Shown one piece after another: positions 14,015-34,260 of a DNA stretch of 37,550 nucleotides. The notes under the pieces were generated by a model, which did not search any database, had not been told where the DNA came from, and worked only from the letters and a program-made list of their open reading frames with translations. Every line of letters starts with the position of its first letter. Position 1 is the stretch's first letter. The position numbers were made by a program, and so were the translations under genes. This DNA comes from a virus, in the IMG/VR virus record IMGVR_UViG_3300035212_000171, positions 1 through 37,550 of that record. The stretch is one strand, 5' to 3'.

Positions 14015-15400
14015 TCACAAGGCGCGAACCGCAGGAGCAGACTGCGGCGCGGTCATATCGGAAATTGCACTCATTGCGGCGTCTATCATATCATCATGTG
14101 TGCCGTTGGGAAAGACCGAGGCCTCGGACATGAAATCGGCCAGGTGATCAATGTTGGACATGATGTAGACATTGCCGGATTGAACATAGGGCGCGGCATC
14201 GAATGCGCGGGTCACTTTGTCGGTATTGCGCTGGATCGGGATGATCGGAATGCCCTCACGTTTCAGCTTCTGGATTAGTCCGGTGCCGCTCACCTTGTCT
14301 TCGACCTTGAAGGCTCGAAGCGGCCCATGATACGGCTGGGAATGATGCTTCTGCCAAAACGCGCGGGCCATCGTCTCAAGTTCTGGAGCTTCCCACTTGC
14401 CGCGTGCCATATCGAGCAGCACGATTTGTCCGGTTTGCGTTTGGCCCCAGCATTGGAAGACGGAATAGTCATTCTGTTCCTTTGTCTTTTGCGCGGTGTC
14501 GGCATAGATCGCCCGCCACTTGAGCGGCGGCATGGCCTCATAGAAACGCCACCATTCATCTTTGAAGATGCCGCCGCCAAGCGGTGCGGGTCGTTGCATG
14601 TATTGGCCAGCGAACACATAGGGACTGGATTGCTCCAGGCGGTCGAGCATCTCGGGCGGGAATTGCTCAGGCCAGAACGATGATCCATCGGGATCACGGG
14701 CGGGGATGACGAGGCTGTCCCAATGTTCACCGGAGCCGCCGCCTAGAAGCCAGCCAGAAAGATCATCCTCGTGGAGCCGCTGCATGATGACGATGATTGG
14801 CGTGTCTGTCTTGTTGAGGCGCGACTGAATCGTGGTCTGATACCAGTCAATGACGTTCTGGCGCATGATGGGCGAGGTTGCTTCACCTGCCTTGTGCGGG
14901 TCATCGATGATGATGGCACCGCCGAAGCCGTCTCGCATCTTGCCAGCTCCGTATCCGGTGATGGTCCCTTCTGCGCCGGTTGCGTAGACAATGCCGCCGT
15001 GTGATGTGCGAAACTCATCCTTTGCCTTGCTATCGTCTTGAAGCGAGACCCACGGGAATATTGATCGATAGGTCTCGTGCTGCATCATGGCGCGGATGTC
15101 GTATGCGTTGGATGTGGCGAGGCGCTTGGAATAGCTGGCATGGATGAATTCGGCATCAGGCACGAGGCCGATGGTCCAGGCGATGAATGCCTTGACAGCG
15201 ATCTCGGTCTTGCCGGATCGAGGCGGCACATTGATGATGAGCCGCTTGATGCGGTGGGCGAAGACCTGCTCAAGGCTGCGGCAGATTTCCCGCTGATGCC
15301 TGTTCGGTAGCATGTCCTGATTGGTGCGGGCGCGATAGATCGTGCGGGCGAATTTATAGAGCCGTTGATGGTTGGCGGCTCGATGCTCACTCGGCGTCAT
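14015..15400 (-). CDS. terL: Terminase large subunit
   Basis: A 461-residue ATPase-nuclease that packages DNA through the portal. Walker A is PPRSGKTE (about residues 59-66) and Walker B is AIIIDDPH (about 162-169). The C-terminal RNase H-like nuclease shows IYADTAQKTKEQNDYS and the late acidic motif GTHDDMIDAAMSAI. ATG 15400 overlaps the TerS coding end by 14 nt. A TTG at 15424 is an unlikely alternative. The family match does not by itself tell cos from pac packaging. Confidence 0.95.
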   Translation of the reverse strand: MTPSEHRAANHQRLYKFARTIYRARTNQDMLPNRHQREICRSLEQVFAHRIKRLIINVPPRSGKTEIAVKAFIAWTIGLVPDAEFIHASYSKRLATSNAYDIRAMMQHETYRSIFPWVSLQDDSKAKDEFRTSHGGIVYATGAEGTITGYGAGKMRDGFGGAIIIDDPHKAGEATSPIMRQNVIDWYQTTIQSRLNKTDTPIIVIMQRLHEDDLSGWLLGGGSGEHWDSLVIPARDPDGSSFWPEQFPPEMLDRLEQSSPYVFAGQYMQRPAPLGGGIFKDEWWRFYEAMPPLKWRAIYADTAQKTKEQNDYSVFQCWGQTQTGQIVLLDMARGKWEAPELETMARAFWQKHHSQPYHGPLRAFKVEDKVSGTGLIQKLKREGIPIIPIQRNTDKVTRAFDAAPYVQSGNVYIMSNIDHLADFMSEASVFPNGTHDDMIDAAMSAISDMTAPQSAPAVRAL

Positions 15401-15770
15401 CGTAAATCTTGTTGAGCGCAGCAAGAACGGCGGCAGCGACTGGCTCCGGTCTCAGTGATCCATCTTCGTTGGAGATGTCCACGGTTTCGCGCCAGCGTGC
15501 GCGCGTCTTGAGCCAGAAGATCATGGCGGTGGTGTCGCCAGCCTTGGCCTTGTTGAATAGCGCACCGCCGATGGTTGCATTTGCCTTGTCGCGTGCTTGC
15601 TTCAGTTCGGCGGAATAGTATTTGTAGAGCGTCTCTTTGTGGATGCTGAGGATTTCGGCAATGCTCTCGTGCGTGGTGCCGACCGTTGCGTGAAGCGAGA
15701 CCAGCTGGCGCTGCGCGTCTGTCGGTGCATGAGGCTTGCGGCCTAGCTTGCCTTTGGTTTCTTCGATCAT
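15387..15770 (-). CDS. Terminase small subunit
   Basis: A 127-residue DNA-recognition subunit. It begins with a basic segment, followed by a helix-turn-helix-like region (about residues 20-55, ESIAEILSIHKETLYKYYS), then a central helical part (AGDTTAMIFWLKTRARWRE) characteristic of small terminase proteins. ATG 15770 overlaps the stop of the Mom gene (ATGA), so packaging genes are translationally coupled to the modification gene. Confidence 0.88.
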   Translation of the reverse strand: MIEETKGKLGRKPHAPTDAQRQLVSLHATVGTTHESIAEILSIHKETLYKYYSAELKQARDKANATIGGALFNKAKAGDTTAMIFWLKTRARWRETVDISNEDGSLRPEPVAAAVLAALNKIYDDAE

Positions 15771-16468
15771 GTCGAGGCCTCAAGAGTTGGAGCGTGTGGG
15801 TCAGTGCTGCCCTGCCGCTGTGCTTCCGGGGAGGAAGCCATCGCCTTCTTCACACGCTTTGGATATGGTTTGGCAAGCGGCATTATACGCTGCCGCATGT
15901 CTTCGTCTAGTGGCATCAGGTATTTGTGTTTTCCTTTTGTAAATACCTCTTTTGCGTTTTGATCTAAGTGTTTTTTAACTTCTACAAGTGATTGTTTAAC
16001 ACCAAGTGAATGGACGGATTTATTATGTCTTAGTCTTCCGTTTATAATAAAGCCTTGTCTTGCGCCTTGATTAAAGACACCTTCATATATCCAATTGGTG
16101 GCCTGATATATTCCACCATGATGACCGTGATCTAAATCAGCGTATGACACTACTAGACGAATTCCTTCATTTGTTTTTTTCAGAAACTTGATAGCCAATG
16201 ACATTATTTTAGACACATGTGTAAAATGATTTGTTAGTGCAACCCTAACAAGTTCTACACATTGATCTTGTCCTAATCCATAAGGTTTTGACATATTATG
16301 GTTTGCACCACGGCCAAACAAGACAACCCCGATAAACTTTCCGTCTTCCCAAGCACCTACTTTGACCAACTTTCCAGCTGGCAAGCATTTGCTATAATGC
16401 CACGTTTCGACAGCATACTTCGCAGCTTCATGTGTTGCCCAGTCGATGCGGAGGTTAGCCTTGCTCAT
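15767..16468 (-). CDS. mom: Mom-like DNA adenine modification enzyme
   Basis: A 233-residue relative of phage Mu Mom, a GNAT-fold protein needed to convert adenine to N6-carbamoylmethyladenine, which protects phage DNA from many restriction enzymes. Family features are WHYSKCLPAGKLVKVGAWED, GVVLFGRGANHN, ELVRVAL, VSYADLDHGHHGGIYQATNW and the following WIYEG. The start ATG 16468 is preceded by GAGGAA and lies within the end of the upstream ParB-like gene. The region is A+T-rich compared with its neighbours (15961-16080 is 34% G+C by direct count), as expected for recent acquisition. The last ~20 residues are low in complexity. Modification of this phage's DNA is an inference. Confidence 0.88.
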   Translation of the reverse strand: MSKANLRIDWATHEAAKYAVETWHYSKCLPAGKLVKVGAWEDGKFIGVVLFGRGANHNMSKPYGLGQDQCVELVRVALTNHFTHVSKIMSLAIKFLKKTNEGIRLVVSYADLDHGHHGGIYQATNWIYEGVFNQGARQGFIINGRLRHNKSVHSLGVKQSLVEVKKHLDQNAKEVFTKGKHKYLMPLDEDMRQRIMPLAKPYPKRVKKAMASSPEAQRQGSTDPHAPTLEAST

Positions 16469-16973
16469 GTTTCCTCATGTCGAACTCATCTCCGCAATGC
16501 GGGCATTGGATGATCTTTGGTGCAAGTTCGTCGAGCTTGCCTTGATCGGCTTCGGTGCCAGCTTCAAAGTTTGGCTCCGCGAACATTGATGCCATCTCGC
16601 CTAGATCGAATCCTGTCATTGTCAGATCGAATTTCATGTCTTCGAGGTCTTTCAATTCAACCTTGAGCATCTCGAAGTCCCATCCGGCATCAAGCGCCAT
16701 CCGGTTATCGGCAATGACATAGGCGCGCTTCTGGGCCTCCGTGAGGTGGCTCGCCTCAACGCACGGCACTTCCTTCAGTCCCAGCTTGTTCGCCGCCAGG
16801 ACGCGTCCGTGGCCCGCTACGATGCCATTCTTGCCGTCTGTCACCACCGGGTTGATAAACCCGAATTCTTTGATTGAGGACGCGATCTTGGTGACCTGGG
16901 CCTCGGAGTGCGTCCGGCTGTTGCGGGCGTACGGGATGAGGTCGGAGGTTGGAATCAGCTTATAGGTCAGCAT
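16455..16973 (-). CDS. ParB N-domain-like protein with C-terminal zinc knuckle
   Basis: A 172-residue protein. Residues 1 to about 105 match the ParB/Srx N-terminal domain: IPTSDLIPYARNSRTHSEAQ, IKEFGFINPVVTD, IVAGHGRVLAANKLGL, and AYVIADNRMALDAGWD. This domain is often joined to, or next to, phage DNA-modification enzymes. The C-terminus ends in CPHCGDEFDMRKH, a possible metal-binding knuckle. ATG 16973 follows AAAGGAC. The end overlaps the mom start by 14 nt. In Mu the zinc protein Com likewise overlaps and controls mom, but Com similarity here is only structural analogy. Confidence 0.82.
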   Translation of the reverse strand: MLTYKLIPTSDLIPYARNSRTHSEAQVTKIASSIKEFGFINPVVTDGKNGIVAGHGRVLAANKLGLKEVPCVEASHLTEAQKRAYVIADNRMALDAGWDFEMLKVELKDLEDMKFDLTMTGFDLGEMASMFAEPNFEAGTEADQGKLDELAPKIIQCPHCGDEFDMRKHEQG

Positions 16974-17157
16974 TGCTGTCCTTTTTATTGTCGGTTTTCT
17001 GGACTGCCTTAACGGCAAGTTCGATGTATCGCGGGATCGGCTGCTTGCCGGTTTCGTAGGCTCGGAACGTATTGCGTGCGAGGCCGAGGGCTTCTGCTGC
17101 CTTGCGCTTCGATAGGGCGACCGAGGTGCGCCATTGGATGAGTTCGTCTGGTGTCAT
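16960..17157 (-). CDS. Small XRE-type HTH regulator
   Basis: A 65-residue DNA-binding protein with the pattern ELIQWRTSVALSKRKAAEALGLARNTFRAYETGKQPIP, a five-helix XRE/Cro fold. I start it at ATG 17157. A longer reading from 17271 would cross the terminator hairpin. No ribosome site is visible and the ATG lies about 8 bases after a TATATT box, so it could be translated from a leaderless message. It is the first gene of the late operon and may control it. Confidence 0.78.
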   Translation of the reverse strand: MTPDELIQWRTSVALSKRKAAEALGLARNTFRAYETGKQPIPRYIELAVKAVQKTDNKKDSNADL

Positions 17158-17164
17158 GCGGCGC

Positions 17165-17193
17165 AATATAGAGCAAAAAAAGCCCCACCACAA
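17165..17193 (-). promoter_or_regulatory. Candidate promoter within the terminator, leading to the late operon
   Basis: On the minus strand TTGTGG (17193-17188) is separated by exactly 17 bases from TATATT (17170-17165). The -10 box matches consensus at five of six positions, but the -35 matches at only three. Transcription would begin close to ATG 17157. The -35 box lies in the hairpin and the spacer holds the T-tract, so read-through and re-initiation would occur at the same place. This is a candidate only. Confidence 0.4.
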
Positions 17194-17202
17194 GGGCGGG
17201 GC
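17174..17202 (-). terminator. Rho-independent terminator before the late operon
   Basis: The minus strand reads GCCCCGCC, loop CTTGT, GGTGGGGC, then seven T. This is an 8-bp G+C-rich stem with one G-U pair. It lies 38 bases after the stop of the XRE-sigma4 gene and ends the 19.2-17.2 kb transcript. Late genes beyond it therefore need read-through, antitermination or a separate promoter. Confidence 0.85.
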
Positions 17203-17239
17203 AAGTTTGCTGCGGCGGGAGGAGTAAACCGCAGGGGGA

Positions 17240-17806
17240 TCAATACCGATATGGATGCTTTGGCACTTCAATGCCCATGCGTCTAGCCTTTTCCCTCATC
17301 TCGCGGAAGGATCGAAGTTCGCATTGCCGGATGCGTTCGCGGGTGACGCGGAAGTCCTTGGCTATATCTTCGAGCGTCTGTTCCGGTTCTCCGGTGAGGC
17401 CGAAGCGGGCTTCGATCATGGCGCGGCGTTTTGGGTGGGTGATGGCGGCGACAAGCTTGGCGAGGAGGGGCTTGTCCACTTCCAGGCTCGACGGTGCGGC
17501 GATCTGGGCGAGTTGCTCGGCGTCGATCTCTGCCTCGATGGAGTTGCGGGCGGTGAGCAGGTCTCGCATGTGGTGTGGCCAGAGTTCTTCCGGCTCGGTG
17601 CGGAGTGCGGAGGAGATGTCCATCGCGAGGGATGACCAGTCGCCGTTGGCTATGGGCTTTAACTTGAAGTTGAGCAGTTCGCCAATGCGTTGTGGTGTGG
17701 TGCCGATGAACTTGGCAAACTCGGCTTGTGTGGAGAACCCTGCGGCCTTGATGGCGCGGAGGAGCCTGGCGTTGCGAACGGTGACTTTGACGGCGAAGTC
17801 GGTCAT
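17240..17806 (-). CDS. Regulator joining an XRE-type HTH to sigma-70 region 4
   Basis: A 188-residue protein. Residues about 11-50 look like an XRE-type helix-turn-helix (LLRAIKAAGFSTQAEFAKFI, TTPQRIGELL). Residues about 113-176 match sigma-70 region 4, with TLEDIAKDFRVTRERIRQ followed by a helix where housekeeping sigma factors recognise the -35 element. No region 2 is present, so it cannot melt a promoter like a full sigma factor. ATG 17806 overlaps the upstream stop (ATGA). A start ten codons earlier is possible. It sits just before the terminator and the late operon, which suggests a role in late gene activation or in redirecting host polymerase. That role is an inference. Confidence 0.82.
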   Translation of the reverse strand: MTDFAVKVTVRNARLLRAIKAAGFSTQAEFAKFIGTTPQRIGELLNFKLKPIANGDWSSLAMDISSALRTEPEELWPHHMRDLLTARNSIEAEIDAEQLAQIAAPSSLEVDKPLLAKLVAAITHPKRRAMIEARFGLTGEPEQTLEDIAKDFRVTRERIRQCELRSFREMREKARRMGIEVPKHPYRY

Positions 17807-33651: not shown

Positions 33652-34260
33652 TCACGGAGAAGAGGCATATTCGCGGCGGCGGAACATCCAGATTTTACCT
33701 GAGTCAATACTGCCCGCAGCAAATCTAACACGAACATTCAAGACTTTTTGAATAGTACTTAACGCTGCGGCACCAGCAATCGCAGAAACCGAAAGAGCAC
33801 TTCCCCATGAAGCTGGCGCAAAATGAATAGACCCACTTATGCGAGGGAAAATTATGTCAACATTAAAATACACTTCTGAACTAGCTGAACTAGATGGAAA
33901 TGATCCAATACTCACCCATGTTGCAGATGTTTCTTTGTAAAGCTCAACAATTAGAGTTGTTGAACTTGCATTATTATGAGAGATTTCTACTCCAAAAATT
34001 CTATATTCATAGCCATCTGTGAAATTTGGACTGGTAATATTTGCTTGGACTCCATTTACAGCGAAATCATAAATCAATCCAGTCTTGCCATCACCAATGG
34101 ACACCTTATCATGCGGATGCCACCCAGATACCATGACAGGAGCGCCAGAAGATGCTTCTGCAATAGCCGAAGGATTGTCGCGCAATGCCGTTACGGTCGT
34201 GCTGGACGGAATGCCGCCGACGGCAACCGCTGCGTTTGATATGCTCGTCCATGTTGTCAT
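33652..34260 (-). CDS. Virion or tail-tip protein, beta-rich
   Basis: A 202-residue protein after the tail hub. ATG 34260 overlaps the hub stop (TGATG); a GTG three codons upstream is possible. It is Ser/Ala/Thr-rich with repeated strands (VMVSGWHPHDKVSIGDGKTG, GYEYRIFGVEISHNNASSTT) like a carbohydrate-binding or fibre domain. Local A+T content is higher than in the hub gene, so it may be a recently exchanged host-specificity module. Function is inferred from position. Confidence 0.58.
   Translation of the reverse strand: MTTWTSISNAAVAVGGIPSSTTVTALRDNPSAIAEASSGAPVMVSGWHPHDKVSIGDGKTGLIYDFAVNGVQANITSPNFTDGYEYRIFGVEISHNNASSTTLIVELYKETSATWVSIGSFPSSSASSEVYFNVDIIFPRISGSIHFAPASWGSALSVSAIAGAAALSTIQKVLNVRVRFAAGSIDSGKIWMFRRREYASSP

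What the first reader, a model, noticed from the sequence alone, without database searches (positions are those of the whole stretch)
15767..16973. Mom-type DNA hypermodification gene coupled to a ParB-domain/zinc-knuckle protein
The mom-like gene overlaps by 14 nt an upstream gene that joins a ParB-like domain to a terminal CPHC...H knuckle. In Mu the zinc protein Com overlaps mom and activates its translation. Here a different, larger protein sits in that place. It could control mom translation, guide Mom to DNA, or supply a second reaction. The mom gene is locally A+T-rich (34% G+C at 15961-16080 by direct count), so it appears horizontally acquired, yet it is tied into the packaging operon. 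A ParB-Mom pair could be a distinct modification module. I do not know whether it has been described.
Basis: partly seen in the sequence, partly recalled or inferred. Interest (0 to 1): 0.75.

Follow-up and report, generated by a model that had tools for sequence, protein, structure and literature searches.

The report
ParB-Mom DNA-modification cassette before terminase
A phage gene for an unusual DNA-base modification (Mom) is paired, here and in every close relative examined, with a small ParB-like protein carrying a tail found almost only next to Mom, and the pair sits in a slot where sister phages carry other DNA-modifying enzymes instead.

Summary
In detail: a 172-aa ParB-N protein with a C-terminal CPHC knuckle overlaps a 233-aa Mom gene by 14 nt, just upstream of terminase. 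The linkage is not peculiar to this phage. Of 220 Mom loci, 208 have ParB directly upstream; the 12 without it are one in-frame ParB-Mom fusion, one truncated contig and 10 distant Moms. A scan for the ParB tail alone found 117 cases: 115 precede Mom, 2 end at a contig edge (one is the fusion). The ParB-linked Moms form one clade. Sister phages, 87-93% identical on both flanks, switch at the end of the ParB-N domain (codon ~128) to other enzymes and rejoin at the terminase small-subunit start: 14 N6/N4-methyltransferases, 8 Moms, 4 TAGT glycosyltransferases, 2 C5-methyltransferases. So ParB-N is a shared front end; tail plus effector is swapped. I infer that ParB brings Mom to DNA through its tail. 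Com-like translational control found no support, but those tests were weak. The general locus ('ParB-Tls', Iyer 2013, cited in PMC6536676) is known, and ParB-Mom adjacency is in print (PMC3146451). Apparently new: the near-obligate pairing, its diagnostic half-zinc tail, and the mapped swap boundaries.

The parts
16590..16973 (-). ParB-N domain (residues 1-128), shared front end of the locus
   Evidence: Pfam ParB_N, PHROG 620; best solved-structure matches are CTP/CDP-binding ParB and Noc (6sdk, 7bm8). 89-98% protein identity to ParB-N of sister phages with other effectors.
16803..16814 (-). Nucleotide-binding-type motif G54-H-G-R57 of the ParB fold
   Evidence: G 100%, R 96% in 98 non-redundant Mom-linked ParBs; equivalence to ParB GERR / sulfiredoxin GxHR is inferred from the fold match.
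16704..16712 (-). A88-D-N90 motif
   Evidence: N 99%, D 91%; equivalence to the ParB ENxxR motif is inferred.
16455..16589 (-). Mom-specific ParB tail (residues 129-172)
   Evidence: Tail pattern scan: 115/117 directly before mom, 2 cut by contig end. Tail divergence tracks Mom divergence better than ParB-N does (partial r 0.295 vs 0.087).
16530..16547 (-). DQGKLD motif of the tail (residues 143-148)
   Evidence: Q 99%, G 98%, L 100%, D 95%.
16494..16505 (-). CPHC half zinc site (C157, C160)
   Evidence: Both Cys and the Pro 100% in 98 non-redundant Mom-linked ParBs; CxxC in 137/137 full-length ones.
16455..16468 (-). 14-nt overlap of parB end and mom start
   Evidence: Same 14 nt in Enterococcus phage phiEf11; most homologues overlap 4-23 nt, modes 14 (49) and 17 (40) of 129.
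16472..16475 (-). AGGA, Shine-Dalgarno-like, before the mom ATG, inside parB
   Evidence: Read directly. SD-like motifs precede 109 of 129 mom starts, against 24-46 at control offsets.
15767..16468 (-). mom: GNAT-fold adenine-modifying enzyme, 233 aa
   Evidence: Pfam Mom 1.9e-46. H24, Y25, S26, E72, R75, S86, S108, D111, H116, Y121 are largely shared with solitary Moms; S86 aligns with the Ser changed in the inactive Mu Mom S124A crystal.
15771..16597 (-). Swappable segment (ParB tail + effector). Left breakpoint 16577-16597; right breakpoint 15771-15784
   Evidence: blastn of flanks against sister phages at about 87-95% identity; 28 distinct cassettes classified.
15387..15770 (-). Terminase small subunit, fixed right flank
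   Evidence: PHROG 309 2.3e-17; mostly 92-96% nt identity in sister phages.
14015..15424 (-). Terminase large subunit
   Evidence: Pfam Terminase_6C, PHROG 38 3.6e-118.
16960..17271 (-). Small HTH gene upstream of parB, part of the fixed left flank
   Evidence: HTH matches, below curated cut-off; conserved with ParB-N in sister phages.

Best explanation
The pair is a DNA-modification cassette. Mom is the enzyme that modifies adenine N6 in phage DNA, as in phage Mu, protecting it from restriction. The ParB protein is its dedicated DNA-targeting or loading subunit. Its ParB-N domain, a nucleotide-binding DNA-clamp-type fold lacking the canonical ParB HTH and C-terminal dimer domains, is a general front end used for chemically unrelated modifying enzymes at this terminase-proximal locus. 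Its C-terminal tail (DQGxLDxLxPK...CPxC) is the Mom-specific coupling element. The two genes are translated from one message with a short overlap, and tail plus effector is exchanged as a unit between phages. Shown here: linkage, tail specificity, one clade, the swap boundaries, retained Mom active-site residues. Inferred: physical ParB-Mom contact, the DNA-targeting role, the modification itself, the shared message.
For: 208 of 220 Mom loci have ParB directly upstream; the other 12 are one in-frame fusion (L211), one truncated contig and 10 distant Moms. 14/14 in genome contigs from Desulfuromonadales, Yersinia, Paenibacillus, Ignavibacteria and others. Family-seeded control: every high-scoring Mom of this clade has ParB, none of the others. 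Tail seeded without reference to Mom: 115/117 next to mom, 2 at contig ends. ParB-linked Moms form one clade (1 change, support 90/86, shuffled mean 13.2). ParB-N 89-98% identical in front of N6/N4-MTase, C5-MTase or TAGT, with breakpoints at the domain end and the TerS start. Tail tracks Mom after correcting for ParB-N (partial r 0.295, 0/500 permutations). Mom catalytic-core residues retained. Structure model of the ParB: pLDDT 85.6, nearest CTP/CDP-bound ParB.
Against: No direct evidence of contact, DNA binding or modification. The fusion L211 could be a 1-nt sequencing or assembly error, and its predicted structure was poor in the ParB half (pLDDT mostly 24-56), so it gives no interface. 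A second ParB-Mom pairing (Psychrobacter phage Y8A, Mu-type Mom) has ParB without the CPxC tail, so the tail is not needed for every ParB-Mom pair. Moms outside this clade mostly have no ParB, so Mom chemistry does not require it.
Confidence: 0.6

Rival explanations
1. Com-like control: the ParB tail binds the mom mRNA and activates translation of mom, as Mu Com does.
For: Same position upstream of and overlapping mom; Cys knuckle; overlap with an SD inside parB. Mu Com is a CCCC zinc finger that binds a hairpin near the mom start (PMC6483171).
Against: No excess folding at 129 mom starts (mean z -0.23, like controls). Only two Cys, against four in Com. It does not explain the ParB-N domain or its use with other enzymes. 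Mu itself also gave no signal in the folding test, so that test is weak.
Confidence: 0.12
2. ParB is a nuclease or nickase that opens or attacks DNA, with Mom as the protecting half, or that nicks to give Mom access.
For: Some ParB/Srx proteins nick DNA (discussed in PMC12839542); annotators call these 'ParB-like nuclease'.
Against: The motifs kept (GHGR, ADN) are the nucleotide-binding ones of ParB/Srx. The domain also fronts plain methyltransferases, where a paired nuclease makes less sense.
Confidence: 0.1
3. ParB is a negative regulator or NTP-dependent limiter of modification, as proposed for DndB.
For: DndB, a ParB-superfamily protein next to a DNA-modification operon, is proposed to limit modification (PMC12839542 and PMC10853773).
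Against: Covalent fusion to methyltransferases and the Mom-specific tail suggest a working subunit rather than a general limiter. No direct test.
Confidence: 0.08
4. ParB serves packaging (with terminase), and mom merely inserts behind it because the site tolerates insertions.
For: Fixed place before TerS/TerL in this phage group.
Against: In Enterococcus, Arthrobacter and Microbacterium phages no terminase is annotated next to the pair in the stretches read, yet linkage persists; the tail is Mom-specific; all 28 inserts here are DNA-modifying enzymes.
Confidence: 0.1

Closest known systems
ParB-Tls locus of phages (Iyer et al. 2013, as described in PMC6536676)
   Same: DNA-modifying genes between a ParB-like gene and terminase; ParB fused to N6/N4 methyltransferases; the proposal that ParB directs modification enzymes.
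   Different: The Paracoccus paper reports methyltransferases. Here the effector is Mom with a dedicated CPxC tail, the exchange boundary is mapped to within about 20 nt, and TAGT and C5-MTase occupy the same slot. Iyer 2013 itself is not in the held library, so whether it already lists Mom could not be checked.
Mu com-mom operon
   Same: Mom family enzyme (PF25680), overlapping upstream gene with a Cys knuckle.
   Different: Com is a 62-aa CCCC finger; here a 172-aa ParB-N protein with a single CxxC. Distant clade of Mom (22.7% identity). The Mu overlap is 50 nt to the GTG start or 80 nt as annotated.
CmoX-ParBc neighbourhoods (PMC12783734)
   Same: ParBc protein near a phage base-hypermodification enzyme; function stated there as unknown.
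   Different: Cytosine carboxymethyltransferase rather than Mom.
Dehalococcoides ssrA genomic-island integration modules (PMC3146451)
   Same: A 210-aa ParBc protein next to a 270-aa Mom homologue.
   Different: Mobile island, not a phage packaging locus; the passages read do not link the two functionally; a tRNA-Gly-like locus is embedded in mom there.
ParB/Noc CTPase clamps (6sdk, 7bm8, 7ng0)
   Same: ParB-N fold and nucleotide-binding-type motifs.
   Different: No HTH domain after the N domain, no C-terminal dimer domain, and no ParA hit among the window ORFs scanned.

Membership tests
Mom family (PF25680) | Match over the curated cut-off along the whole profile | tested here: met
   158.7 bits against cut-off 27.1, profile 1-202/202.
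Mom family (PF25680) | Catalytic-core residues, including the Ser altered in inactive Mu Mom S124A | tested here: met
   H24, Y25, S86, D111, Y121 match Mu Mom. Ser124 in the 241-aa numbering (Ser114 from the GTG start) aligns with window S86; in the 231-aa numbering residue 124 is Ile, so the 241-aa numbering must be meant.
Mom family (PF25680) | N6-carbamoylmethyl-adenine in phage DNA | not testable with these tools
   Needs nucleoside mass spectrometry.
com-mom operon (Mu type) | Upstream Com: small CCCC zinc finger | tested here: not met
   Upstream protein is ParB-N with one CxxC.
com-mom operon (Mu type) | Translation-inhibiting RNA structure at the mom start | tested here: inconclusive
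   No excess folding at 129 starts, but Mu gives no signal in the same test.
ParB partition proteins | ParB-N fold with nucleotide-binding motifs | tested here: met
   (motif equivalence inferred).
ParB partition proteins | HTH parS-binding domain and C-terminal dimer domain, with ParA | tested here: not met
   Protein ends at 172 aa with the tail after the N domain; no ParA among the 20 window ORFs scanned. Not every window ORF was scanned.
ParB-Tls modification locus | DNA-modifying gene between a ParB-like gene and terminase | tested here: met
   ParB 16455-16973, mom 15767-16468, TerS 15387-15770, TerL 14015-15424; sister phages carry other modifying enzymes in the same slot.

The most novel reading that the evidence does not exclude
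ParB-N is a nucleotide-gated DNA loading clamp that phages use as a common front end for chemically unrelated base-modifying enzymes. In the Mom branch it docks its enzyme through a zinc site built in trans: CPxC from the ParB tail plus His residues invariant only in ParB-linked Moms (H81, H117; solitary Moms mostly have other residues there). The trans zinc site is a guess from conservation; no structure shows it.
Probability: 0.15. Interest if true: 0.75.

Novelty: new variant of a known kind. Interest (0 to 1): 0.55.

Why it matters
Why ParB domains sit in front of phage DNA-modifying enzymes is stated as unknown in the 2025 CmoX paper (PMC12783734). This locus gives a natural experiment: one nearly constant ParB domain, several exchanged enzymes, and a short tail specific to one of them. 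It yields a directly testable adaptor hypothesis, a sequence signature that predicts Mom partners, and sister phages whose locus differs mainly in this cassette. Alternative cassettes occur in contigs of the same metagenome (3300034093: Mom in L230 and N6-MTase in L245; 3300044610: TAGT in L239 and a fused C-terminal domain of methyltransferase length in L261), as expected if phages trade protection chemistries under restriction pressure (inference).

Tried and rejected
RNA structure at mom starts as a Com-like signal: mean z -0.23, no different from controls; Mu also negative, so uninformative. Recent horizontal transfer argued from G+C alone: rejected as weak, because mom is lower in G+C than its surroundings across the family; the breakpoint map replaced it. 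Gly-tRNA as Mom's glycine donor: tRNA-Gly genes are annotated next to mom in Appa and Salinibacter B2_17 and a tRNA-Gly-like locus lies in mom in Dehalococcoides, but only 1 of 211 Mom-bearing loci has a default ARAGORN tRNA-Gly, and relaxed scans show no clear enrichment (38/556 near against 169/3954 elsewhere). Predicting the ParB-Mom interface from the fusion: mixed ParB and Mom alignments misaligned; with Mom rows only, the ParB half was unreliable. Iyer 2013 (gkt573, PMC3763556) and Karambelkar 2020 (gkaa319) are not held.

Full report
What is there. On the - strand the order is HTH (16960-17271), ParB-N protein (16455-16973), Mom (15767-16468), terminase small subunit (15387-15770), terminase large subunit (14015-15424), portal. 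ParB and Mom overlap by 14 nt; Mom and TerS by 4 nt. A TTG at 17018 would extend the ParB ORF to 187 aa, but the ATG at 16973 fits the family. The window is a whole virus record (G000) with no tRNA genes.

The linkage is conserved. An IMG/VR scan with a Mom alignment gave 80 loci, and nearly all have a ParB directly upstream. Counting all loci then held, 208 of 220 Mom loci have ParB; the 12 others are one in-frame fusion (L211), one contig that starts inside mom (L019), and 10 distant Moms, including Mu. Four weaker-scoring distant Moms also lack ParB. Some contigs were fetched twice; there are 161 distinct Mom sequences. In bacterial genomes all 14 loci have the pair, across Pseudomonadota, Bacillota, Desulfuromonadales, Ignavibacteria and others. 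A survey seeded by the Pfam family rather than by this clade gave the same split.

The tail is specific. Scanning IMG/VR for the tail pattern DQG.LD-x8-CP.CG, without reference to Mom, gave 117 loci: 115 with Mom next, 2 cut at the contig end, one being the fusion. In 98 non-redundant Mom-linked ParBs, F136, Q144, G145, L147, C157, P158 and C160 are 98-100% conserved (one search counts positions one higher). There are only two Cys, so zinc, if bound, needs ligands from a second chain.

The enzyme. The ParB-linked Moms form one clade and keep the residues shared by most Moms, including the serine whose change gives inactive Mu Mom in PDB 8bv8. Clade-specific conserved positions include W40, E41, G54, H81 and H117. 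A Mu-type Mom next to a ParB without the knuckle in Psychrobacter phage Y8A (annotated hypothetical; Pfam Mom 1.8e-55) is a separate pairing.

The swap. Searching with the ParB-N domain alone returned ParBs 89-98% identical to this one in front of other enzymes: fused N6/N4 methyltransferase, C5 methyltransferase with a different knuckle tail, and TAGT glycosyltransferases. More distant ParBs (65% identity or less) also precede a TAGT, GNAT/ABC-ATPase genes or a Dam-like protein (the Dam-like call is from sequence inspection only). blastn shows homology at about 87-93% ending at window 16577-16597 and resuming at 15771-15784, the TerS start. Among 28 distinct cassettes in this slot: 14 N6/N4-MTase, 8 Mom, 4 TAGT, 2 C5-MTase. 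L051 carries two tandem mom genes, each preceded by the same tail-coding DNA, consistent with tail plus mom as the unit moved (inference).

Coupling. Tail distance correlates with Mom distance after removing ParB-N (partial r 0.295), far more than ParB-N after removing the tail (0.087). Relatedness inflates such numbers; the comparison between the two is the point.

Mechanism. The model of the ParB is good (pLDDT 85.6) and resembles nucleotide-bound ParB, but without an HTH. I therefore propose a DNA-loading or guiding subunit. This is inference from modular exchange; no binding was tested. The Com-like model is not excluded.

Known work. PMC6536676 describes the ParB-Tls locus and credits Iyer 2013 with the idea that ParB directs modification during packaging. 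PMC12783734 reports ParBc near CmoX with unknown function. PMC3146451 lists ParBc and Mom side by side in Dehalococcoides islands. PMC7468147 reports methyltransferase and acetyltransferase variants exchanging in one region of a Mu-like cryoconite phage. Phage records such as phiEf11 already annotate both genes adjacently. The kind is known; this variant and its tail appear undescribed in the held library, which lacks Iyer 2013.

Noticed in passing
L004:4663-4737 and L005:4618-4690: Annotated tRNA-Gly genes immediately downstream of mom in Microbacterium phage Appa and Salinibacter phage B2_17; a tRNA-Gly-like locus lies inside mom in Dehalococcoides islands (PMC3146451). Mom adds a glycinamide-like group, so a Gly-tRNA donor is a thought; no clear enrichment across the other loci.
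   Followed up: partly
L051:710-1396 and 1457-2107: Two tandem mom genes, each preceded by the same ParB-tail-coding DNA.
   Followed up: partly
L039:1813-2418: A second, distant-type Mom upstream of the ParB-Mom pair in the same contig.
   Followed up: no
L003:3786-4007; L035, L037, L038, L042, L085: About 190-220 nt separate ParB and Mom in about a dozen loci; in Arthrobacter phage Martha this holds a 73-aa ORF of unknown role.
   Followed up: no
L277:3525-4604 and L303:532-1795: ParB followed by GNAT and ABC-ATPase genes (fused in L277), resembling the GNAT-ABC modification system mentioned in PMC7824862.
   Followed up: partly
L217:2471-3337: Arthrobacter phage SWEP2 gene annotated as endolysin matches the Mom profile; probably misnamed or a mixed-domain protein.
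   Followed up: no
L005:4010-4600; L100; L101: mom split between two frames in Salinibacter phage B2_17 and in both Paenibacillus sp. OVF10 copies; broken genes or sequence errors.
   Followed up: no
window 33811-34110: A second A+T-rich patch in the window (31.7-39.2% G+C in 120-nt windows).
   Followed up: no
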